A DNA stretch of 64,000 nt from Candidatus Bathyarchaeota archaeon. GTDB taxonomy: Archaea > Thermoproteota > Bathyarchaeia > Bathyarchaeales > SOJC01. Made by a program: the position numbers and the translations under genes. Below the pieces are notes generated by a model. The model was given only the letters and a program-made list of their open reading frames with translations. It did no database searches and had not been told where the DNA came from. The stretch spans positions 1 to 64,000 of the forward strand of contig JAOZHR010000020.1 of NCBI GenBank assembly GCA_026014805.1, written 5' to 3'. Below, piece after piece: positions 43,956-61,791 of the stretch. Each line of letters starts with the position of its first letter. Position 1 is the stretch's first letter.

Positions 43956-44066
43956 CGCCGGGGAGAGGATTTGAACCCCTGAGGGTCAAAGACCCACCGG
44001 CTGACTAGCCCACTTCTAAACACTATGGATCTCGAGGCCGGCGCATTACCGCTCTGCCACCCCGGC
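43956..44066 (-). tRNA. tRNA-Ser (anticodon CGA) with 28-nt intron
   Basis: Acceptor GCCGGGG (5' end at 44066) pairs with CCCCGGC, and G73 is the discriminator. The anticodon stem CCGGC/GCCGG encloses C-T-C-G-A-G and A. The intron at 44003-44030 splits positions 37 and 38, the canonical archaeal site. A long variable arm (GGGTC-TTT-GACCC) identifies a class II serine tRNA. T arm AGGGG-TTCAAAT-CCTCT. The mature length would be 83 nt. Confidence 0.93.
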
Positions 44067-48156: not shown

Positions 48157-48858
48157 ATGTTAGACCCCTTTATTCTTGTAAGCGTCTTGTCAGTATTCAC
48201 TTTGATAGTTGCAGTTCTATATAGCAAACGCATCCGTGAAGCTCATGAAAAGTATGTAGAAGCCAAAAGCATTATTGGCGACGTTATTTTCAGTTTTAAC
48301 AGGCAGGTGCAAAGACAGGGGGACCAGCTTGAGATTTCAGCTCGGAAGGTCGATGTTCTTTCTAGTCATAACGAGTTTTTTACTGAAAAACTGGCAAAGC
48401 AGGAAAAAGAGGTCCAGGCGCTTGCGAAAAAGGTGAAATCCCTTCCTACTTTGGAAAAGGTGCTAACTAGAATTGACGCCTTGGAAGATAAGTTCGTTGA
48501 AGTTTCGTCGATGAGAGATACCTTGCTACAGAAAGTTGATGAGATGGAGGAACGAAGGTTTCACCAGATAGAGTCGGAAACAAAAATTGAATCAGCCATT
48601 CCAATAAAGCGAGAAAAAGCGTTGGCGCCGTTGACTACAACTGAACTTTCAGTTCTTGAGTTTCTTGCTATTGAAGGAGAAAAGACAGCCCCGGAAATAA
48701 AGGAGCGAATAAAACTTAGCAGAGAACACACGGCGCGTTTGATGAAGAAACTTTATGAAGATGGTTATTTAGAGCGTAGCACCAGCAAAATTCCTTTCAA
48801 GTACCATCTGAAAGAAGAGATGCGGAAAATTCTCAGGGGCCCTGAGCAGAAAGGCTAG
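48157..48858 (+). CDS. Membrane-anchored coiled-coil protein with C-terminal winged helix
   Basis: One N-terminal membrane helix (FILVSVLSVFTLIVAVLYS), a coiled coil over about residues 25-140 (heptads in LAKQEKEVQALAKKVKSLPT and beyond), a short linker and a MarR/ArsR-like winged helix at about 158-225 (TTTELSVLEFLAIEGEKTAP, then LSREHTARLMKKLYEDGYLE). The layout suggests a membrane-tethered DNA-binding protein. The stop overlaps the convergent herA by 4 bp, and TGTGA repeats precede it. Role unknown; origin or chromosome tethering, or one-component signalling, are possible. Confidence 0.75.
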   Translation: MLDPFILVSVLSVFTLIVAVLYSKRIREAHEKYVEAKSIIGDVIFSFNRQVQRQGDQLEISARKVDVLSSHNEFFTEKLAKQEKEVQALAKKVKSLPTLEKVLTRIDALEDKFVEVSSMRDTLLQKVDEMEERRFHQIESETKIESAIPIKREKALAPLTTTELSVLEFLAIEGEKTAPEIKERIKLSREHTARLMKKLYEDGYLERSTSKIPFKYHLKEEMRKILRGPEQKG

Positions 48859-50420
48859 CTGGTGCCGAGGTTCCTAGCTGCGTTTCGTAGTCGTTTCAGA
48901 TTTTCCTCCATAGCTTTAAGGGGTTTAGATGGAGGCAGGTTGTAGTCAACTTTCTCTTTAGTTTCTAAGTATTCTGGGTAGTGCGTCACCTTCACCGGGA
49001 CTGCAAATCGAATCTTTGGCTCAGAAATTAGTAATGCTTCGCCTATATCAAGCATCTTTACTTCTGTGTCACTGTACTCGAGGTACGGCGTATTTCTAGT
49101 AAGATAGTCTCTATCAGTCTTCAACTCGGTTTTCATAATAACTTTGGTCCAAAGCTCTGCAAAAACATCGGGATTAATCCTAGAAGGTCGTGGCGTCACT
49201 GCGTTTAATCCTACACGATATTTTCGATATGTCAATGCGATAGCAGAGAAAATTGTCCCTTCTCTGCTTGGATCTAGAAATTCATGAGCCTCCTCAAGCG
49301 TTATTAATAACGTAGGCAGTTTCTGCCATTCTTCGAATTTTGCTTCCCACATGCGCTTGTAATGGTTTGCCACACCTGACGCCGTTAAACAAACGACACG
49401 ATGCTGCTCCTCAATTGTAATTCCTGAAATGTCAACGAGGCATGTGATTCCTTGGCTTATGTTTTCAATAACATCATCAATAAAGCTGTATCTAGAGGGA
49501 GGGAAAAGCCTTGAATCTAAGGAGAGGAGTTTTCTCATTAAAGCAGCGATCGTCTCTCTGTGTGCGCTTGTTATTTTGGCTATACCTGTTCGCCCGTTCC
49601 GTTCATATTCTTCTCTTGACTTTTCAATCCACCCCTCTCCAAGTTGCTGATATAGCTTCTCAGCAAGTCGATTTTGAGGAGGGGTAATATCGGGATACAG
49701 ATTACGCAACTTCCAAGGACGAAGTGTTCGAAGACCAACACGCAGTTTTTCCTCTTTTGTACTATAGAATCGTACTCTACTATGAAAGAACGGGTGATTG
49801 CATAAGCCTTTATTATTCAGCTCCTTCCCCTCCAGTAATTGCCCAGCGAAGTCAAAAATCAACCCTGCAGTTCTTGGACTGTGGTCGACTAACTGTGCAT
49901 TTATTATTAGTTCAGTGTTGGTTTTTCCAGAGCCTGTCATGCCAAAAATGCCCATCATTCGCGGTATTGCATCGACATTTATCCCTACAATCCCGAGAGT
50001 TTGTTCTCCGGAACGCAGATACCCTATTTTCAACTCTCCTGCAAGTTTCAATACGTCTGAATCTTCTGCAGTTGTCGGGTAGACTTTGTCCATATAGTTA
50101 GGGTTGAAAGTCGGAGACCGAACCTTCCCAGCTTTTCTTTCAAGAAAAAGAATAGCCTCAATATTTTTGTAACACGAGTAAGGGCCAAAAGCTTCCTTTC
50201 CTTCTGCTTCGCGAAGTTGCTCACCAGTATCAAGAGTAGACTTGCTTTGGGCATTCACAACTCTAGCATAAAACCTACTGTTACCTGAGTCTACGCGAAC
50301 TATTTGCCCAAAGCAAAGATTTGTGCCCTTGTTCAAGAAAAAGGAGATCTTGTCACCTTTTACTTCGCATATGGAACCAAAATGGTTAGACACGCTCAAT
50401 CCACTCCCAATTGAAAGCAT
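48855..50420 (-). CDS. herA: HerA-like DNA translocase ATPase
   Basis: A hexameric FtsK/HerA-class ATPase that pumps DNA, normally working with NurA in end resection. An N-terminal HAS-barrel (about residues 5-60) precedes Walker A MGIFGMTGSGKTNTELIINA. Walker B is in TLLITLEEAHEFLDPSREG, and the later R-Y-S/T-x-x-R element is LTYRKYRVGLNAVTPRPSRI. The frame opens at 50480; ATG 50420 has GGGG about six bases upstream and begins near the barrel. It overlaps nurA by about 35 bp. Unlike the usual archaeal arrangement, no mre11 or rad50 is nearby. Confidence 0.88.
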   Translation of the reverse strand: MLSIGSGLSVSNHFGSICEVKGDKISFFLNKGTNLCFGQIVRVDSGNSRFYARVVNAQSKSTLDTGEQLREAEGKEAFGPYSCYKNIEAILFLERKAGKVRSPTFNPNYMDKVYPTTAEDSDVLKLAGELKIGYLRSGEQTLGIVGINVDAIPRMMGIFGMTGSGKTNTELIINAQLVDHSPRTAGLIFDFAGQLLEGKELNNKGLCNHPFFHSRVRFYSTKEEKLRVGLRTLRPWKLRNLYPDITPPQNRLAEKLYQQLGEGWIEKSREEYERNGRTGIAKITSAHRETIAALMRKLLSLDSRLFPPSRYSFIDDVIENISQGITCLVDISGITIEEQHRVVCLTASGVANHYKRMWEAKFEEWQKLPTLLITLEEAHEFLDPSREGTIFSAIALTYRKYRVGLNAVTPRPSRINPDVFAELWTKVIMKTELKTDRDYLTRNTPYLEYSDTEVKMLDIGEALLISEPKIRFAVPVKVTHYPEYLETKEKVDYNLPPSKPLKAMEENLKRLRNAARNLGTS

Positions 50421-51372
50421 GTTTTGCCCCATGAAGCTCGTCTGCAAAATTGCAGGCAAGTTCTTCTTGGCGAAGTACATCGAGAAGCCCGGCGCCGGCT
50501 AACTCTTCTTCAACTTGGACGTGATATTGAAGTAGCTTGGTCTCAGAAACACCCGAAAAATCGTGCGCCAGCCACAGTACCACTGGATAGCCCAGACAAC
50601 GAGGGTCCTCGGAGATCACAGAAAGAGGTGACAGCAGTGATTGTATGTTGTGGTTGGTTAAATAGCTCATTATGTCACAGCGGAAGGCTCGCGGACTGTC
50701 TTCACACAGCTTAATGATAGATATGTCGCCGTAAAGGTGCTCATGAATGTTAGCTTTCTTAACAGGGTAATAAACCCAGCGTCCCTGAGGGGCAAGCATG
50801 TACGTCGCAGCAATAAGATCTCGCCCCTTCTCGTCATGAAGTTTAGGAGATTGTTTACTTATAGCTAGTAGTTTTATTCCTCTTCTTTCACATTTCTCAT
50901 AAAGCATGGCATTAAATTTTCTTTCACCGCCAAAGTAGCTGGCTCCATCAAGAAGAACATAGTCATTTTTATCTGCTTTATGGAGTAACCTTAAGGCCAT
51001 TTCGCTCTCTAATTGAAGTCTCGTTTCTTGTAGAATTTTGCGACGTACATATGAATCTCCTTTCAACGTTTTGATTCTCTCTTTGAAATTCCAGTCTACT
51101 TCTCGTTTTTTAACAGTAGCGTATGAAACTCGGAAGAGGTATATGCCCCAATTGTTTGCTCTCTTTAAGGTTCTAGTCGAACAATCTACCGCAAAGAAAT
51201 GTACATCACAAGTTTTCGCTTTCTTTAGTGGAGCAATATTTGCTAATGCTGGTTTTAAGTTTATTGAAGGTTCATCTTTTATATCTCTAAAACTTGTTGA
51301 CTGCCCCTTCTCAATGTAACTTTTCAGTATTTCCTTCATCTCGTTAAAATCTGTTTTAACTTCTTTATCCAT
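50386..51372 (-). CDS. nurA: NurA-type 5'-3' nuclease
   Basis: An RNase H-fold nuclease partner of HerA. The N-terminal catalytic aspartate is in CDVHFFAVDCSTRTL; a second acidic motif is DYVLLDGASYFGGERKF, and late residues include GYPVVLWLAHDFSGVSE. Length 328 is typical. Overlap with herA implies coupled translation. Two copies of the GCGACGTACAT 11-mer fall in this gene, one on each strand (50798-50808 and 51040-51050). Confidence 0.82.
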   Translation of the reverse strand: MDKEVKTDFNEMKEILKSYIEKGQSTSFRDIKDEPSINLKPALANIAPLKKAKTCDVHFFAVDCSTRTLKRANNWGIYLFRVSYATVKKREVDWNFKERIKTLKGDSYVRRKILQETRLQLESEMALRLLHKADKNDYVLLDGASYFGGERKFNAMLYEKCERRGIKLLAISKQSPKLHDEKGRDLIAATYMLAPQGRWVYYPVKKANIHEHLYGDISIIKLCEDSPRAFRCDIMSYLTNHNIQSLLSPLSVISEDPRCLGYPVVLWLAHDFSGVSETKLLQYHVQVEEELAGAGLLDVLRQEELACNFADELHGAKHAFNWEWIERV

Positions 51373-51443: not shown

Positions 51444-51863
51444 TTATTTATTTTTCATAATCCTTAGGCTGTTTTGCGCCAATCTTGTTATCAGTTGATA
51501 CTTCATGTTATAGGTTAACCCTCTTCTTGCAAGGACCCCGCGGTCAACCATTCTTGCTAAATATGTAGAAACTGTACTAAGAGAAATTGGTTCATTGAAT
51601 TCTTGTTCGTACGCTGCGAGAATTTCCTTAGAAGAAAACCATGCAAAAGGAAAATGTTTTTCAGCAACAGTTTTGGTTTTGTCGAATTTGGAGGCACTAG
51701 CTATGCTATTCTTTAATTGTTGCTTGTCATGTATGCCGCTGAGTAACTCCACAATATCAAGTAAGCATAAAGCCTTTTCTCTAGTCACTTTACCTTCAAA
51801 AGTTATATTGTAACGGTTACCATCCTCATCATATACTTCCACTCGCATTTTCTTGGCAGGCAT
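51444..51863 (-). CDS. Winged-helix regulator upstream of nurA-herA
   Basis: A 139-residue protein. An N-terminal beta-rich piece (MRVEVYDEDGNRYNITFEGK) is followed by helices and a winged helix at the C terminus (FSSKEILAAYEQEFNEPISL, then TVSTYLARMVDRGVLARRGL). ATG 51863 has GGTG six bases upstream. It is the first gene leftward from the putative origin and probably heads the nurA-herA transcript. It could regulate that operon or bind the origin region. Confidence 0.7.
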   Translation of the reverse strand: MPAKKMRVEVYDEDGNRYNITFEGKVTREKALCLLDIVELLSGIHDKQQLKNSIASASKFDKTKTVAEKHFPFAWFSSKEILAAYEQEFNEPISLSTVSTYLARMVDRGVLARRGLTYNMKYQLITRLAQNSLRIMKNK

Positions 51864-51963
51864 AGTACGCACCAGAAGATAATATCAGTCACTTTACACT
51901 TCACAAGATATAATTGTTATGAAAAAAGCATCATAGTAAAAAAGCTGAAAACGGCGGCGTACA

Positions 51964-51983
51964 AACAAAAGGAGGGGGTTTTG
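51964..51983 (+). promoter_or_regulatory. ORB-like element 1 (weak)
   Basis: AAACAAAAGGAGGGGGTTTT resembles the A-A-A-C-x-A-A-G-G-G-G-G half of the ORB consensus but lacks the T-T-C-C-A arm. Confidence 0.45.
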
Positions 51984-52056
51984 CAATTATTTGGAGTTAA
52001 CAGTATTCACAAACTATTTGTTTGAAAAAATGGAAAAAAACTGTAATCATCTTTAA

Positions 52057-52080
52057 ATTTCCAAAGGAAACCAAGGGGTC
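52057..52080 (+). promoter_or_regulatory. ORB element 2 (best match)
   Basis: TTTCCAAAGGAAACCAAGGG at 52058-52077, followed by GTC, matches the ORB pattern T-T-C-C-A-n-n-G-G-A-A-A-C-n-A-A-G-G-G-G with an intact dyad and G-string. Confidence 0.75.
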
Positions 52081-52200
52081 TCTTATTCACACTAGAGTAG
52101 ACAAAAATAACCAAAAAATGCCAGATCAGCCTATAGAAAATCTCATATTAGGCTAAACTTTACTAATGCTTCACAAAATGTGACTATTAATATTTTCACC

Positions 52201-52222
52201 AACCCCTATATTTCCATTGCAA
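52201..52222 (-). promoter_or_regulatory. ORB-like element 3, inverted
   Basis: On the minus strand it reads GCAATGGAAATATAGGGGTT, with the G-G-A-A-A and G-string parts conserved and opposite in direction to element 2. Confidence 0.55.
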
Positions 52223-52399
52223 AACTTAGTGTGTAAATTAATATTGTTGGTTCATATTAGAAATATGGATTTGTTAAGTGAAAGAGTGTATTTGCTAAAA
52301 AATATTTGACCATCAATATTAAATATATTCGGTCGTACTAAACAATCAGAGTATATTTCTTTCAATAAGAAATCATGTTAATATTTTATTTCAAAAGAG

Positions 52400-52423
52400 T
52401 TTCCATAAGAAAGAAAGGGGTGT
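52400..52423 (+). promoter_or_regulatory. ORB-like element 4
   Basis: TTTCCATAAGAAAGAAAGGG (52400-52419), followed by GTGT: the T-T-C-C-A arm and the A-A-G-G-G-G string are kept; the dyad right arm is A-G-A-A-A. Confidence 0.6.
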
Positions 52424-52607
52424 GTGTGCAAGTACCTTTAAACCATTAAGCTTCTTTTTACTTTATATACGCAACAACTTTCTACATCTTACACTTTGCT
52501 TTTTAGTTCTATAGTATACCTCCATTTTTTTGTATGAGAGTGTTTATCTTTTCCAGTTGAAAGCAAGGTTTTACAATTGCATTTGCTGAAGGGAGAAAAC
52601 TATCGTT

Positions 52608-53864
52608 ATGAAAAAAGAAGCAGATATGCTTGATTCTGTCTTTGAACGTTTTCTGAAAACTAACCACTTTTTTAGGGATAGAGATGTACTCCGCCATGAC
52701 TACATCCCAAAAAAACTACCTCACCGTGAAGATCAGATAAGGCACTTAGGCATGATTGTTGCTCCTCTGTTAAAAGCAGAAAGATGTTCCAACATATTTA
52801 TTTATGGAAAAACAGGTACTGGAAAAACTGCTGTCATGAAATATGTGCTAAGCCGGCTTGTGCAAAAGGCTGTAGAATTTGGTGCACCAGTTAGGGCAGC
52901 GTATGTAAATTGCCGCTTAGAAGGAACGGAATATAGGGTGTTTACACGATTATGTGGTTCCTTAAACATCCATGTACCCTTTACTGGACTTGCTGTTGGC
53001 GAAGTTTTTGATCGCTTTAAAAAAGGTCTGGAAACCCAAAATCTCTCACTTATTGTTATATTAGACGAACTTGATGAGTTGATAAAGGCTAGAGGCAACA
53101 TTCTCTTATATCAACTGACGAGGGTAAACGGTGCTCTTTGTAATAGTACCGTCTCTATCATTGGAATATCAAACGATCTACGTTTCAAAGAAATGCTGGA
53201 GCCACGCGTTTTAAGTGCCTTGAGTGAAGAGGAGGTAATGTTTAAACCCTACGATGCTTCCGAACTTCAAGACATTTTATGGCAAAGGGCAAAGTTAGCA
53301 TTCTGCAAGGGTGTTTTACTAGAAGGTGCTGTGAGCCTTTGTGCCGCTTTGGCTGCTGCGGAACATGGGGATGCAAGGCGCGCACTCGACTTGCTCCGTG
53401 TGGCAGGCGAAGTAGCGGAGAGGGAGAATGCAAAGATAATAGCCGAAGACCATGTTAGAGAAGCCGAGAAGCGAATTGAGCGTAATAGAGTAATTGATGC
53501 ATTAACAAATTTGACACTGCACTCAAAATTCGTTCTCTACAGCGTATACCTCCTCGGAAAAGCAAACATTTACTCCGCCATTACTGGCGACATATATGAA
53601 ATATATACTGAACTGTGTAAGGAAATCGGAGTTTCTCCACTGACACAGAGAAGAGTAAGTGGGCTTGTAAGTGAGCTAGATTCAATTGGGTTACTAAATT
53701 CAAGGGTCATAAGTAGAGGTCGTTATGGTCGGACAAAAAAAATTAGTCTCGCAATACCGCGAAGCCCCTTAAAGAAAGTGTATATAGACGATGCCCACTT
53801 AGGACAGTTAACTGATTTCACACCGAAGTGTTTGATACTGAAATTTGGCAAAACTAAGCATTAA
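52608..53864 (+). CDS. orc1: Orc1/Cdc6 replication initiator
   Basis: An AAA+ origin-binding protein that loads MCM. Walker A is FIYGKTGTGKTAVMKY and Walker B LIVILDELDELIKA; sensor 1 is VSIIGISNDLRF. The arginine-containing sensor 2 stretch is in EHGDARRALDLLRVAGE, and a C-terminal winged helix (LTQRRVSGLVSELDSIGLLN) binds ORBs. Length 418 is normal. It lies beside the putative origin and convergent, with 11 bp overlap, with the PolD small subunit gene. Confidence 0.96.
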   Translation: MKKEADMLDSVFERFLKTNHFFRDRDVLRHDYIPKKLPHREDQIRHLGMIVAPLLKAERCSNIFIYGKTGTGKTAVMKYVLSRLVQKAVEFGAPVRAAYVNCRLEGTEYRVFTRLCGSLNIHVPFTGLAVGEVFDRFKKGLETQNLSLIVILDELDELIKARGNILLYQLTRVNGALCNSTVSIIGISNDLRFKEMLEPRVLSALSEEEVMFKPYDASELQDILWQRAKLAFCKGVLLEGAVSLCAALAAAEHGDARRALDLLRVAGEVAERENAKIIAEDHVREAEKRIERNRVIDALTNLTLHSKFVLYSVYLLGKANIYSAITGDIYEIYTELCKEIGVSPLTQRRVSGLVSELDSIGLLNSRVISRGRYGRTKKISLAIPRSPLKKVYIDDAHLGQLTDFTPKCLILKFGKTKH

Positions 53865-55410
53865 AGTCCACAGGTAAAACAGCAAGGGTCTGAAGATCTA
53901 CAACAGGGATAATACCCGGTGTGGGTTCTAAACCCAAACTTCTCTGATAACCAGTTTGCTTTTGCCAAGCACCAGAATTAACCATAAGAGTTCCTCTATA
54001 AAATTCATGTTTCATAACGTGTACATGACCTGTATGGAAAACATCTGGAACACTTTCTATTACAAGAAAGTCTCGCTTCTCCGGCGCGATTGAGGTGCGC
54101 TGACCGTATGTAGGCGCCAAATGTCGACCTTTCAATAACAAGCGCATAGCTCTCTCCGGAGAATGAAAATCCATATCCGCCGCTGTAGCCAAGACATCGT
54201 CTAGACTTCGTCCATGATAAATGAGAAATTCTACTCCATGAATGCTTACAGTTGCTGGGTTGCCTAGTGATAATATATTCCGCGTCTCATAAAGGGGCTC
54301 TCCATACCTCTTAGGGATGGCCGGTTGTGGCAATGCCTTCCTCGCGGCGTCGTGGTTTCCAGGAATGATTATCAGCTCTATGTAGTCTGGGATCTGCTCG
54401 ATGAATTTTGCCGCCAGTCTATATTGCTTGAAGACATCTCGTTCGGCTAGGTCTTTTATTTGGTTTGGATAGACACCTACACCATCCACGATATCACCTG
54501 CGATAATGATGTACTTGACGCGGCTAGCGACTTCTCTTAAGTTCTTATCTCCGTATTTTCCATTGAGCCACAACACAAAACGATTAAATTCCTCTCTCAT
54601 GAACTCTTTGCTTCCCACATGAAGATCGGATATAAGGGCTACATGGACAGCTTCTTTAGCTTTATGCGGTTTCTTTTGAGGAATATCTGGGAAAAAGAGT
54701 TCTTCGACAATTAGCAAGTTCTTTCTGCTTTTCAATAAGCTTAGGCATACAACTTGATCAAGTAGTAGCGACTTTGCCTTCTCAAAAAGTTCCTTAGATG
54801 CATTTCGGGGAATGAGCACTGTAGCGTTGGTTTCTAGGTCTTCGATTTTTAAGAAAACTCCGTATTTTGATTCACGCTTCTCTGAAACTATACAAAATAT
54901 CTTGACTCTTGAATTAGATGCCGCTCGGAACGCCTCTTTTATTGATGCAGCATTCTTAGAATCCATTCGTTGTCGCAGCAGTTTTCTTATTCGCTTAAAC
55001 CGATCCTGAAAGTATTCAAGATATTCATTAATTGAACCAGTTGAACATATTTTGTCGGTTGGATCCTCTAATACTTTTATGTCTTTATCCACATCCTTTG
55101 CGTTTGGGTAGAAGGGTCTTTTGGATTTTCCTGTTGCTATAGAAGGTTCCTGCAGGGCGGAGACAGCAAGTGTTTTTGTTTCTTCCGTATCTGGAAAGGT
55201 TTCTTTTGCTGTTTCTTCAAGAAGATTCTTGCTTATAAAAAGCGGTCTTTCATCGAGTCTTTCCAATTTTTCCAGAGTCATTTCAATGAGCTTTACTGGA
55301 TCCTCTGTTTTTGATATTGTAGTGAGAAGGTTGAAAGCTTCTTTGTTGAGGTGATAGCCTGCTGTGAGGGAAAATGAGATTGCTTGCTGAACTTTCTTTT
55401 GCTTATTCAA
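53854..55410 (-). CDS. polB: DNA polymerase D small subunit (DP1)
   Basis: The 3'-5' exonuclease/regulatory subunit of archaeal PolD. The calcineurin-like phosphoesterase domain has all metal motifs: ALISDLHVGSKEFM, IIAGDIVDGVGVYP, IIPGNHDAARKALPQPAIP and VFHTGHVHVMKH. It is preceded by an OB fold (KIFCIVSEKRESKYGVFLKI) and a helical N terminus. Length 518 is typical. Pairing with orc1 is conserved in other PolD archaea. The large subunit is at 58381. Confidence 0.95.
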   Translation of the reverse strand: MNKQKKVQQAISFSLTAGYHLNKEAFNLLTTISKTEDPVKLIEMTLEKLERLDERPLFISKNLLEETAKETFPDTEETKTLAVSALQEPSIATGKSKRPFYPNAKDVDKDIKVLEDPTDKICSTGSINEYLEYFQDRFKRIRKLLRQRMDSKNAASIKEAFRAASNSRVKIFCIVSEKRESKYGVFLKIEDLETNATVLIPRNASKELFEKAKSLLLDQVVCLSLLKSRKNLLIVEELFFPDIPQKKPHKAKEAVHVALISDLHVGSKEFMREEFNRFVLWLNGKYGDKNLREVASRVKYIIIAGDIVDGVGVYPNQIKDLAERDVFKQYRLAAKFIEQIPDYIELIIIPGNHDAARKALPQPAIPKRYGEPLYETRNILSLGNPATVSIHGVEFLIYHGRSLDDVLATAADMDFHSPERAMRLLLKGRHLAPTYGQRTSIAPEKRDFLVIESVPDVFHTGHVHVMKHEFYRGTLMVNSGAWQKQTGYQRSLGLEPTPGIIPVVDLQTLAVLPVDFNA

Positions 55411-58237: not shown

Positions 58238-58384
58238 ATGCTGGGTAAAATAAACAAGTTGCTGTCCATAAATACAATAGCACTACCCACATTATTGGCA
58301 CTTTTAACCTTCTTCGTGTCAGAAAACCCAAAATACGCCTCTACAATTGCAGTTACTGGGCGAGCTTTTTGGGCGTCAAGATGA
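58238..58384 (+). CDS. 48-residue single-helix membrane protein coupled to polC
   Basis: ATG 58238 to TGA 58382-58384. One hydrophobic segment (TIALPTLLALLTFFVS) lies between a Lys-containing N terminus and a polar C terminus (TIAVTGRAFWASR). Its last codons overlap the polC start (ATGA), implying translational coupling. Family not recognised. Confidence 0.5.
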   Translation: MLGKINKLLSINTIALPTLLALLTFFVSENPKYASTIAVTGRAFWASR

Positions 58385-61300
58385 GCAAGGAATATCAGCG
58401 ATACGCGTTTTCAATTGAAAATGAACTGCAGAGACTTTATGAAATCGCCAGAAAAGCGCGAGAAAAAGGGTTAGACCCTGCACTGAAACCTGAATCCGAA
58501 ATTGCGAAAGACCTTGCGGAGCTTGTGGAAGGTTTGGTGGGCCCTACAGGGGTTGCAGAGAGCATAAGGGAACTAAGCGAAAAGCTTCCTCGCGAAGAGC
58601 TTGCTTTTAAAATTGCCGAAGAAATTGTCTATGGTAAGTTTGGCCACATGGACACTCAGACCGCTGCAGAGCAAGCCGTTCGCACATCTCTTGCCATTCT
58701 GACAGAAGGCATAACAGCAGCTCCTTTGCAGGGAGTTGCAAAGGTATCCATAAAAACTAACCTCGACCAAACAAAGTATTTGGCTATATATTATGCAGGT
58801 CCAATTCGTTCGGCTGGGGGCACAGATCAGGCATTAACACTTGTGATCGGCGACTTTGTACGTCGTCTTCTTGGCTTGGACCGTTACAAGCCTACGGAGG
58901 AAGAAATAAATCGGTTTATTGAAGAGATGCGGCTATATGAGCGAAGTGTAGGTCGATTTCAATATCACGTCGCTGATGAGCGACTTCGGATGGCTCTAGA
59001 GTCAATACCCGTCGAGGTAACGGGCACCGAATCTGACCCTGTTGAGGTGCAGTCTTTCCGCAATTTGCCTAGAATAGAGACAAATCATGTTCGTGGGGGT
59101 GCTCTGCGTGTAGTAAACGACGGTGTTATAGGTCGAGCAGCAAAGGTCTTCATCATTATTAAAAAATTAGGCATTGAGGGTTGGGATTGGCTGAAACACA
59201 CAGGCGAAACGAGGGGAACTCAGGAAAAGAAAAAGACTGCTGGTTTTATGGAAGACATAATTGCGGGGCGTCCCGTTTTTTCGTTTCCTTCACAACCAGG
59301 TGGGTTTCGCCTTCGCTATGGGCGGTCAAGAAACACTGGTTTGGCCGCTGTTGGAGTACACCCCTTGACAATGTTGGTTCTAAACCAATTCCTTGCTGGA
59401 GGCACACAGATTCGTATGGAATTGCCAGGTAAGGGTGGGATAGTTATGCCTGTGGACACTATTGAGCCACCTATAGTATTGTTAAAAGACGGCTCAGTAA
59501 CTCGCGTTTCAAGACAAAACTTCGAGCAAATAAAAAACAAGGTTGATAAGATTCTTTTTCTGGGTGACCTACTCGTTAGCTTTGGAGACTTCTTGTATAA
59601 CAACAAAAAGCTTTGCCCTTCAGGGTATACAGAGGAATGGTGGAAGGGTGAGTTGGAATTAGTGATAACGCAGCATTTTAAAGGTGATTTTGAGAAAGCA
59701 GCAACATCTACACATGTCTCGGCGCAACGTTTAGAAACATTCCTTTCACACCCCTTCCACAACAAACCAAATGCGGAAGAAGCTATTGCGATAGCTAAAA
59801 ACCTCGATGTTCCGCTTCATCCAAATTATAGTTTCTTCTGGTCGAACATAGCAACCGAGGAATTACACGAACTGCGCCAATGGCTGCTCAATTCTCAGGT
59901 TCAAAGAGAGAACGAGCAAATTTCCCGAATAACTAATGAATTGAACACTACAGTGAAGAGCGTACTAGAGCGTTTATGCCTTCCTCACCGAGTTGTTAAA
60001 AATCAAATAATCATTGAAGGCAATGAAGCTTTCACCTTGGCTACTTGTCTTGGCTTTGATTCACCAACAGCTAAATTTGACACCGCCATTTCTTCTTTCG
60101 AGGCTTTAAAGAATCTTTCCGGTATTACTGTTCGAGCAAAAATACGTACCACCATAGGGGCACGTATGGGTAGACCCGAGAAAGCAAAAAGACGAGAAAT
60201 GAAGCCTCGCGTCCATCTTCTCTTCCCTGTAGGACTAGCTGGAGGGTCGCAACGTGATTTAATTATAGCAGCTCAAAAGGGGCCAGTTCGTGTAGACTTG
60301 GTAAAGCGACGATGCCCAAGCTGCCGAGAACAGACTCTGAGAACCAAATGTCCTTCATGTCACGTTAAAACAGTTCTTGAGAAAACTTGTCCCCGATGCG
60401 GTATAAAAGCTGATAAAGATGTTTGCCCGACCTGCAAAATTCCTACTAGCGGCTTTGAACGGCAAACGCTTGACTTGAAACCCCTGATTAGAGATTCTTG
60501 CCGCCAGTTGGCTGTCAATCAGCCAGAGATTATTAAAGGAGTTAAAGGCTTGTCAAACGAGCACAAGGTTGCTGAAATTTTTGAGAAGGGTATTCTTCGC
60601 GCTAGGGGAGACCTGTCTGTTTATAAAGATGGGACAATACGGTTTGACGCTACAAATGCTCCACTAACTCATTTCAAACCTGTTGAAGTCAGAGTTTCAG
60701 TGGAGAAACTTAAACAGTTAGGATACGCTTTGGATTTCCAAGGCAGCCCTCTAACCAGTGAAGAGCAAATTTGCGAATTGAAGGTGCAAGATGTTGTCAT
60801 CCCGCGAAAGAGCGCAACATATTTTGTTCGTGTGGCGAACTTTCTTGACCAACTTCTCGAAAAAGTCTACAAACTTCCAAAACATTACAACGTGAAACAA
60901 GCTGAAGACTTGGTAGGTCATCTTTTGGTTGGTTTGGCTCCCCACACTTCTGTCGGCATTTTAGGTCGTATCATAGGATTCACCGACCTTGACGTCTGCT
61001 ACGCTCATCCCTTGTGGCATTCTGCAAAGCGGCGTGATTGTGATGGAGATGAAGACGCTTTGATGCTTGCTCTTGATACTTTGTTGAACTTTTCAAGGTC
61101 ATATCTGCCTTCTAAAATAGGCGGCATAATGGACGCGCCTCTTTTCATAATTCCAGTTATTAATCCGATGGAGGTGCAGCGCCAAGCGCACGAGTTTGAA
61201 ATTGTCGATCATTATCCTTTGGAATTTTACGCGAAAACGTTAGAAAATGTTGCTCCTTGGAAAGTGACGAACCTAGTTGATTTGGTTGCCCACAAGTTGG

Positions 61301-61791
61301 GAACTGAAGCGCAGTTTGAGGGCTTTGGCTATACAACTCCTGTTTCGAACATTAACATGGGAAATCGTGAAAGCATGTATAAGAAGCTTAAGAAGATGAC
61401 CGACAAGCTAAACAGTCAGTTAGAGCTTGCAGACAAAATCGAAGCGGTTGACGCCAAGCGTGTGGCTTTGAAAGTCTTAACAACTCATTTTCTTAGGGAT
61501 ATCTCTGGAAACCTCCGCGCTTTCTCAACTCAAGGCTTCCGCTGCAAACTGTGCAACAAACGTTTCCGCCGCATGCCACTTAAAGGAAAATGTCTAGAAT
61601 GCGGAGGCCCATTGTCACTGACAGTGTATCGTGGCGGAATCGAAAAATATATTGCCGCCGCACGGCGCCTCGTGGAAAAATATGATCTGCCCAGATATTA
61701 TCTTCACCGTCTTGCATTGGTGGAAGAAGAGATAGCCACTCTATTCGAAGGGAAGAAGCCTCGGCAAATAAGCCTTGTAGATTTTGCTTAA
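58381..61791 (+). CDS. polC: DNA polymerase D large subunit (DP2)
   Basis: The catalytic subunit of replicative PolD, with a two-barrel active site related to multisubunit RNA polymerase. The catalytic acidic loop is SAKRRDCDGDEDALMLALD. A zinc cluster of several C-x2-C pairs spans about residues 640-695 (CPSCREQTLRTKCPSCHVK and following), and a further zinc module is CKLCNKRFRRMPLKGKCLEC. No intein. The last eight residues, Q-I-S-L-V-D-F-A, resemble a PCNA-interacting PIP box. Start: ATG 58381; a TTG four codons earlier is the alternative. Confidence 0.96.
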   Translation: MSKEYQRYAFSIENELQRLYEIARKAREKGLDPALKPESEIAKDLAELVEGLVGPTGVAESIRELSEKLPREELAFKIAEEIVYGKFGHMDTQTAAEQAVRTSLAILTEGITAAPLQGVAKVSIKTNLDQTKYLAIYYAGPIRSAGGTDQALTLVIGDFVRRLLGLDRYKPTEEEINRFIEEMRLYERSVGRFQYHVADERLRMALESIPVEVTGTESDPVEVQSFRNLPRIETNHVRGGALRVVNDGVIGRAAKVFIIIKKLGIEGWDWLKHTGETRGTQEKKKTAGFMEDIIAGRPVFSFPSQPGGFRLRYGRSRNTGLAAVGVHPLTMLVLNQFLAGGTQIRMELPGKGGIVMPVDTIEPPIVLLKDGSVTRVSRQNFEQIKNKVDKILFLGDLLVSFGDFLYNNKKLCPSGYTEEWWKGELELVITQHFKGDFEKAATSTHVSAQRLETFLSHPFHNKPNAEEAIAIAKNLDVPLHPNYSFFWSNIATEELHELRQWLLNSQVQRENEQISRITNELNTTVKSVLERLCLPHRVVKNQIIIEGNEAFTLATCLGFDSPTAKFDTAISSFEALKNLSGITVRAKIRTTIGARMGRPEKAKRREMKPRVHLLFPVGLAGGSQRDLIIAAQKGPVRVDLVKRRCPSCREQTLRTKCPSCHVKTVLEKTCPRCGIKADKDVCPTCKIPTSGFERQTLDLKPLIRDSCRQLAVNQPEIIKGVKGLSNEHKVAEIFEKGILRARGDLSVYKDGTIRFDATNAPLTHFKPVEVRVSVEKLKQLGYALDFQGSPLTSEEQICELKVQDVVIPRKSATYFVRVANFLDQLLEKVYKLPKHYNVKQAEDLVGHLLVGLAPHTSVGILGRIIGFTDLDVCYAHPLWHSAKRRDCDGDEDALMLALDTLLNFSRSYLPSKIGGIMDAPLFIIPVINPMEVQRQAHEFEIVDHYPLEFYAKTLENVAPWKVTNLVDLVAHKLGTEAQFEGFGYTTPVSNINMGNRESMYKKLKKMTDKLNSQLELADKIEAVDAKRVALKVLTTHFLRDISGNLRAFSTQGFRCKLCNKRFRRMPLKGKCLECGGPLSLTVYRGGIEKYIAAARRLVEKYDLPRYYLHRLALVEEEIATLFEGKKPRQISLVDFA

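What the first reader, a model, noticed from the sequence alone, without database searches (positions are those of the whole stretch)
51864..52607. Predicted chromosomal replication origin with ORB-like elements in both orientations
The sequence shows an AT-rich, gene-free 0.74 kb next to orc1 with one near-consensus origin recognition box (52057-52080), two good variants (52400-52423 plus, 52201-52222 minus) and a weaker one (51964-51983). ORB recognition by Orc1/Cdc6 is established in archaea; that this is the active origin is inference.
Basis: partly seen in the sequence, partly recalled or inferred. Interest (0 to 1): 0.65.

Follow-up and report, generated by a model that had tools for sequence, protein, structure and literature searches.

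The report
Archaeal replication origin with ruler-spaced boxes
This is very probably the chromosomal DNA replication origin of an uncultured Bathyarchaeia archaeon; besides the usual initiator-binding boxes it carries a second set of short repeats held at fixed distances from one of those boxes, probably the docking sites of a second origin protein not yet identified.

Summary
Window 51864-52607 is an AT-rich gap (70% AT against 57.5% for the window) next to orc1 in a Bathyarchaeia genome. It holds three strong origin recognition boxes: A 52058-52081 (+), B 52200-52223 (-), C 52400-52423 (+). A matrix built only from other genera ranks these three first in the window. The equivalent three boxes rank first in the whole closed 1.84 Mb chromosome of a relative. 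The same +/-/+ trio lies upstream of orc1 in 21 representative loci. A conserved degenerate one at 52550-52573 was missed.

Composition skew in that closed relative does not show a clear origin.

New here: the commonest repeated word is TTCACA, on one strand only, at near-invariant offsets from ORB A (about -158, -62/-52, +28, +101/+112), while other distances drift. A scan of 251 genomes of the class, not restricted to orc1 loci, shows the +101 and +112 peaks. The gene across the origin from orc1 encodes a small, uncharacterised, single-copy protein with a predicted winged-helix fold. It is found in many families of the phylum, in several of them beside the origin. That it binds the boxes is inference.

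The parts
52608..53864 (+). orc1/cdc6 initiator gene (Orc1-1 type): Walker A GKTGTGKT, Walker B DELDE, lid and C-terminal winged helix
   Evidence: TIGR02928 415 bits, Cdc6_C and Cdc6_lid above cut-off
52058..52081 (+). ORB A, TTTCCAAAGGAAACCAAGGGGTCT
   Evidence: 31.1 bits, rank 1 in the window; conserved
52200..52223 (-). ORB B, TTTGCAATGGAAATATAGGGGTTG
   Evidence: 28.9 bits, rank 2; conserved
52400..52423 (+). ORB C, TTTCCATAAGAAAGAAAGGGGTGT
   Evidence: 26.4 bits, rank 3; conserved
52550..52573 (+). ORB D, degenerate ORB (TTTCCAGTTGAAAGCAAGGTTTTA) just downstream of a TATA-like TTTATC, ending 34 bases before the orc1 ATG; possible autoregulatory site
   Evidence: 7.9 bits, fourth best in 64 kb; block conserved in the family; scores 13.0-15.9 at the same place in G003 and G006
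51900..51905 (+). TTCACA box 1, offset -158 from ORB A
51997..52011 (+). TTCACA box 2 (52006-52011, offset -52) with degenerate partner TTAACA (51997-52002) 9 bp upstream; some relatives have TTCACA at both
52086..52091 (+). TTCACA box 3, offset +28, 7 bases after the GGGG of ORB A
52159..52175 (+). TTCACA box 4 (52170-52175, offset +112) with degenerate partner TTTACT (52159-52164, offset +101)
52224..52399 (.). probable DNA-unwinding element between ORB B and ORB C, 77% AT; 52315-52394 is the least stable 80 bp of the whole window
51444..51863 (-). 139-aa predicted winged-helix protein, divergent from orc1 across the origin; no Pfam or NCBIfam family
53854..55410 (-). DNA polymerase D small subunit DP1, convergent with orc1
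   Evidence: NF003118 above cut-off
58369..61791 (+). DNA polymerase D large subunit DP2
   Evidence: TIGR00354 and NF003103 above cut-off
48855..51372 (-). HerA-like helicase and NurA nuclease genes beside the origin
   Evidence: Pfam DUF87/HerA and NurA

Best explanation
51864-52607 is the Orc1-dependent chromosomal replication origin (oriC1 type) of a Bathyarchaeia species. Shown by sequence: three strong ORBs in +/-/+ order, a fourth degenerate one in the orc1 leader, and the least stable stretch of the window between ORB B and ORB C. Also shown: four TTCACA boxes on one strand, locked at fixed distances from ORB A (about -158, -62/-52, +28, +101/+112) across the class. Inferred: Orc1 monomers bind the ORBs with polarity set by the G-string, recruit MCM and open the AT-rich B-C interval. 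Inferred: a second protein binds the boxes, often as pairs one helical turn apart, and folds about 270 bp around Orc1 on ORB A into one defined complex that positions or releases the helicase. Inferred: ORB D lets Orc1 limit its own transcription. The likeliest box binder is the small winged-helix protein encoded on the other side of the origin (about 0.4); the second Orc1 is unlikely. About 0.92 for origin, about 0.9 that the boxes are a real functional element.
For: ORB ranking in the window and in a closed 1.84 Mb chromosome and in the own genome. Trio conserved in 21 representative loci. Replication gene setting orc1-DP1-DP2, the neighbourhood reported for euryarchaeal origins (PMC2643942). 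Least stable 60 bp lies between B and C in 20 of 21 loci. TTCACAA 43 copies against 2.9 expected in 21 upstream regions. Six boxes in 272 bp is the best TTCACA cluster of the G003 chromosome, and the other clusters listed lie inside genes apart from the edge of one. Anchored at ORB A, 57 of 82 boxes fall on 8 offsets, against 19, 18 and 12 anchored at ORB B, ORB C or the ATG; offsets learned in one family predict 30 of 44 boxes in the others (5% expected). Class scan of 251 genomes: peaks at +100-103 and +112-113. The winged-helix gene is single copy and divergent from orc1. Closed genome G010 has no second Orc1 yet keeps boxes and winged-helix gene; G006 shows only fragmentary further Orc-like hits.
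Against: GC skew in the closed relative G003 has its extremes about 300-400 kb away and third-position skews are not significant, so activity has no support from composition. No binding data exist for Orc1 or the winged-helix protein. In several families the winged-helix gene is present but not beside orc1. G019 has the Orc1-1 gene but no detected winged-helix gene. In Nitrosopumilaceae-like family f29 the winged-helix gene flanks the origin, yet the exact ORB-to-TTCACA pattern is rare. The structure model is weak.
Confidence: 0.9

Rival explanations
1. The ORBs are an operator for orc1 and for the divergent winged-helix gene, and replication starts elsewhere or without an origin (as reported for Thermococcus kodakarensis, where the origin and Cdc6 are dispensable).
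For: No skew inflection in the closed relative. PMC5663688 reports replication independent of Cdc6 and the origin in T. kodakarensis (title and abstract).
Against: Three ORBs over 366 bp with inverted pairs around the least stable DNA are far more than an operator needs. The trio and spacing are conserved across the order.
Confidence: 0.07
2. The TTCACA boxes are operator sites for transcription of the winged-helix gene, unrelated to replication.
For: Box 1 lies about 40 bp upstream of that gene's start codon.
Against: Boxes 2-4 lie 140-310 bp upstream of that gene. The boxes keep distance to ORB A, and box 3 starts 5 bases past the end of ORB A. The boxes are the top cluster of the G003 chromosome.
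Confidence: 0.15
3. The boxes are bound by Orc1-1 itself or by the second Orc1 paralogue.
For: Orc1 proteins bind origins, and a second Orc1 is common in the group.
Against: TTCACA is not part of the ORB consensus derived here. The closed genome G010 has one Orc1 only and G006 only fragmentary further hits, yet boxes remain. Orc1-1 cannot be excluded.
Confidence: 0.25
4. The fixed spacing is only slow drift of a recently shared sequence.
For: All loci descend from one origin.
Against: Columns between boxes are near background (median 0.25 bits) while box columns reach 0.8-1.9 bits, and A-B distances range from 142 to 272 bp in the same loci. The 251-genome scan shows the same two peaks.
Confidence: 0.03

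Closest known systems
Sulfolobus oriC1 (Orc1-1, ORB1-3, DUE, ucm motif bound by UBP)
   Same: Three ORBs next to orc1-1, an inverted ORB pair around AT-rich DNA, and an extra sequence motif between ORBs (PMC12141716).
   Different: The ucm is one 11-bp site in the ORB3-DUE-ORB2 region; here at least four TTCACA boxes on one strand spread over about 270 bp on both sides of one ORB. UBP is reported as confined to Desulfurococcales and Sulfolobales; no UBP-like protein is implied here.
Haloarchaeal oriC1 (Haloarcula hispanica)
   Same: AT-rich region flanked by inverted ORBs with G-strings, next to cdc6, with an accessory repeat inside that enhances firing (PMC3936714).
   Different: The accessory element there is a G-rich inverted repeat; here it is a one-strand TTCACA array phased to a single ORB.
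Pyrococcus and other euryarchaeal origins in a cdc6-PolD gene neighbourhood
   Same: Origin beside cdc6 with DP1 close by (PMC2643942).
   Different: Different ORB ending (AA[AG]CTC in Thermococcaceae, Ori-Finder 2 Table 1, PMC4164010) and no TTCACA array reported in the passages read.
Ori-Finder 2 common archaeal ORB motif
   Same: TCCA[CG]T[TG]GAAA[TC][GA]AAGGGGT; the consensus derived here is TTTCCAGTGGAAATGAAGGGGTGT.
   Different: Nothing of note; Bathyarchaeia ORBs are classical.

Membership tests
Archaeal oriC1-type Orc1/ORB origin | Adjacent orc1/cdc6 gene | tested here: met
   415 bits to TIGR02928, 52608-53864
Archaeal oriC1-type Orc1/ORB origin | Two or more ORBs, some in inverted orientation, more than chance | tested here: met
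   Ranks 1-3 in the window; ranks 1-3 in 1.84 Mb for the relative
Archaeal oriC1-type Orc1/ORB origin | AT-rich, easily melted stretch flanked by inverted ORBs | tested here: met
   B-C interval; 20 of 21 loci
Archaeal oriC1-type Orc1/ORB origin | Boxes conserved in related genomes | tested here: met
Archaeal oriC1-type Orc1/ORB origin | Composition skew turns at the site | tested here: inconclusive
   GC no; MK and AT3 maxima within 3-5 kb but amplitude not significant; one closed relative only
Archaeal oriC1-type Orc1/ORB origin | Orc1 binds the ORBs; replication starts here in vivo | not testable with these tools
   Needs footprinting and marker-frequency sequencing
ucm/UBP-like accessory origin element | A conserved non-ORB motif within the origin | tested here: met
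   TTCACA boxes
ucm/UBP-like accessory origin element | Motif bound by UBP or a homologue | not tested
   UBP sequence not compared; the paper gives its range as Sulfolobales and Desulfurococcales
ucm/UBP-like accessory origin element | Motif needed for firing in vivo | not testable with these tools
   Needs genetics
Winged-helix initiator such as WhiP | Winged-helix protein encoded beside the origin | tested here: inconclusive
   Confident helical core (pLDDT 84-90) consistent with a winged helix, weak Pfam hits to winged-helix families, no significant fold match
Winged-helix initiator such as WhiP | Sequence homology to WhiP | not tested
   WhiP sequence not compared

The most novel reading that the evidence does not exclude
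The small winged-helix protein is a dedicated second origin-binding factor of Bathyarchaeia and Nitrososphaeria-like archaea. It binds TTCACA boxes (or their local variants) and builds, with Orc1 on ORB A, a rigid complex needed for helicase loading or release: an independent counterpart of Sulfolobus UBP, encoded at the origin itself.
Probability: 0.35. Interest if true: 0.82.

Novelty: new variant of a known kind. Interest (0 to 1): 0.6.

Why it matters
Bathyarchaeia are abundant, and I found no report of their origins in the papers searched. The origin itself is of a known type, but the ruler-like second box set is a strong, testable sign of a second sequence-specific protein in archaeal initiation outside Sulfolobales. 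The 2025 UBP paper (PMC12141716) names the existence of such proteins in divergent lineages as an open question. The gene next door is an immediate candidate.

Tried and rejected
Fourth ORB at 51964-51983: rejected (-2.5 bits, G-run not conserved). GC, AT, RY and MK skews on closed G003, raw and third codon position: no convincing origin signal. Origins beside the other two orc-like genes of this genome: no ORB at orc1-2 (best 1.4 bits); one weak site (10.6 bits) beyond the Orc-like gene on C10. The second Orc1 as general box binder: disfavoured, because a closed genome without it keeps the boxes. Winged-helix protein by PDB sequence profile and by fold: no significant relative. TTCACA in the literature as an archaeal origin motif: no relevant title seen among the hits (papers not opened). 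Exact box pattern in Nitrosopumilaceae-like and other classes: mostly absent, so the box claim is limited to Bathyarchaeia, with only box +112 seen in two Nitrososphaeria contigs. tRNA or other RNA in the origin: none.

Full report
What was checked. The window lies in contig C20 of a 1.79 Mb, 32-contig assembly, 96.6% complete. Named relatives of its orc1 are Candidatus Bathyarchaeota, for example DAOVMU010000048 at 95% protein identity and CP070835 at 79%. The genes around the finding are HerA-like helicase and NurA (48855-51372, minus), a 139-aa protein (51444-51863, minus), the intergenic region, orc1 (52608-53864), DNA polymerase D small subunit (53854-55410, minus) and large subunit (58369-61791).

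The ORBs. I built a matrix from 59 ORB sites upstream of orc1 in relatives, leaving out the window's genus and G003 (a closed relative, used as the test chromosome). Its consensus is TTTCCAGTGGAAATGAAGGGGTGT, the common archaeal motif of Ori-Finder 2. In the 64 kb window the three best sites are A 52058-52081 + (31.1 bits), B 52200-52223 - (28.9) and C 52400-52423 + (26.4). The fourth is 52550-52573 + (7.9), also in this intergenic region; the best site elsewhere scores 5.6. In the closed 1.84 Mb chromosome of G003 the three best sites of the whole chromosome are its A, B and C (30.3, 28.9, 26.5; next 16.3). So there is one ORB cluster per chromosome there. The trio is +/-/+ with A-B 142-272 bp and B-C 119-238 bp in 21 representative Bathyarchaeia loci of six families (one of them scores C only weakly).

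Where DNA may open. Between B and C the DNA is 77% AT, and 52315-52394 is the least stable 80 bp of the 64 kb. In 20 of 21 loci the least stable 60 bp of the region lies between B and C. The G-strings of B and C point away from this interval; those of A and B point towards each other. I could not establish from the papers read how this compares with Sulfolobus or haloarchaeal polarity, so A-B, which carries boxes 3 and 4 and resembles ORB3-ucm-ORB2 in size, remains a second candidate.

ORB D. The block TTTATCTTTTCCAGTTGAAA...TGCATTTGCTGAAGGGAG before orc1 is conserved in the family. ORB D (52550-52573) follows a TATA-like TTTATC and ends 34 bases before the ATG. That Orc1 represses its own gene there is inference.

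The second box set. A count of all 7-mers in 21 upstream regions gave TTCACAA and CTTCACA as the most enriched words (43 against 2.9 expected; 29 against 1.2), ahead of ORB words. They are on one strand. In the window they are at 51900, 52006, 52086 and 52170. Measured from the start of ORB A they sit at -158, -52, +28 and +112; relatives add partners at -62 and +101, so pairs are 9-11 bp apart. Anchored on ORB A, 57 of 82 boxes fall on eight offsets; anchored on B, C or the ATG only 19, 18 or 12 do. Offsets learned in the window's family predict 30 of 44 boxes in the other families, against 5% by chance, and none of four opposite-strand copies. Stacking sequences on ORB A without gaps gives box columns up to 1.85 bits, against a background median of 0.25; a shift control reached at most 1.06, so box columns below that value are individually not beyond the control. 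A pattern scan of 251 genomes of the class, asking only for an ORB core followed by TTCACA at any gap from 75 to 105, gave 98 matches, with 42 at offsets 100-103 and 21 at 112-113. In G003 six boxes in 272 bp is the best TTCACA cluster of the chromosome. The next clusters and most paired copies lie inside genes, with one intergenic pair and one cluster edge elsewhere. I chose the word TTCACA after seeing it enriched, so the enrichment figure is exploratory; the spacing tests are separate from that choice.

Who binds. The 139-aa protein has a helical core (residues 59-107, pLDDT 84-90) consistent with a winged helix and a low-confidence N-terminal strand pair. It has no Pfam, NCBIfam or PDB match above noise. 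A relative was found in 36 of 41 near genomes and in 102 of 161 genomes drawn from the phylum, one copy each. It is divergent from orc1 with the origin between them in the order of the window and, by coordinates, in families f10, f29, f32, f34, f41 and f43; in f30, f35, f39, f46, f48, f50, f54 and f55 it is present but not adjacent. Two named Nitrososphaeria contigs (L068, L069) have it beside orc1 and keep a TTCACA at +112. The second Orc1 is not needed: closed genome G010 has a single Orc1 and G006 only fragmentary further hits, yet both keep boxes. The link between this protein and the boxes is by position and shared range only. Exceptions are G019 (Orc1-1 but no such gene found) and f29 (gene beside the origin but exact pattern rare).

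Skew. In G003 the GC-skew minimum is at 1,745,605 and the maximum at 1,048,237, with the origin at 1,444,100. Raw MK disparity peaks at 1,440,898, and third-position AT and MK residuals peak at 1,441,750 and 1,439,633, but their amplitudes are within a block shuffle (p about 0.43). I count this as inconclusive.

Verdict. An origin of a known type (about 0.92), in a group where I found no published origin, with a newly seen second box set (about 0.9 that it is real and functional) whose binder is unknown (about 0.35-0.4 that it is the neighbouring protein).

Noticed in passing
window 51444-51863 (-): Uncharacterised small predicted winged-helix protein, single copy in most sampled genomes of the phylum but absent from several complete families, no family model in Pfam or NCBIfam.
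   Followed up: partly
L180 (G000:C10:88000-104000), gene at C10:95511-96443: A third, short Orc1-like gene (310 aa) a few genes from a large helicase or primase-like ORF; looks like an integrated mobile element.
   Followed up: no
L179 (G000:C29:76000-87826), gene at C29:84858-86051: Second Orc1 paralogue with the replication factor C small and large subunit genes about 4-6 kb away and no ORB nearby.
   Followed up: partly
window 43956-44066 (-): Rfam calls a tRNA of 111 bases that ARAGORN misses; probably an intron-containing tRNA gene.
   Followed up: no
window 52340-52375: A further conserved stretch GAGTATATTTCTTT...AAGAAA in the B-C interval of the family, not explained by ORBs or boxes.
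   Followed up: no
G252, G309 and G275 origins: Matches in family f29 show two ORB cores about 60 bp apart with TTAACAnTGTTAA or a similar element between them; may be their local version of the accessory element.
   Followed up: no
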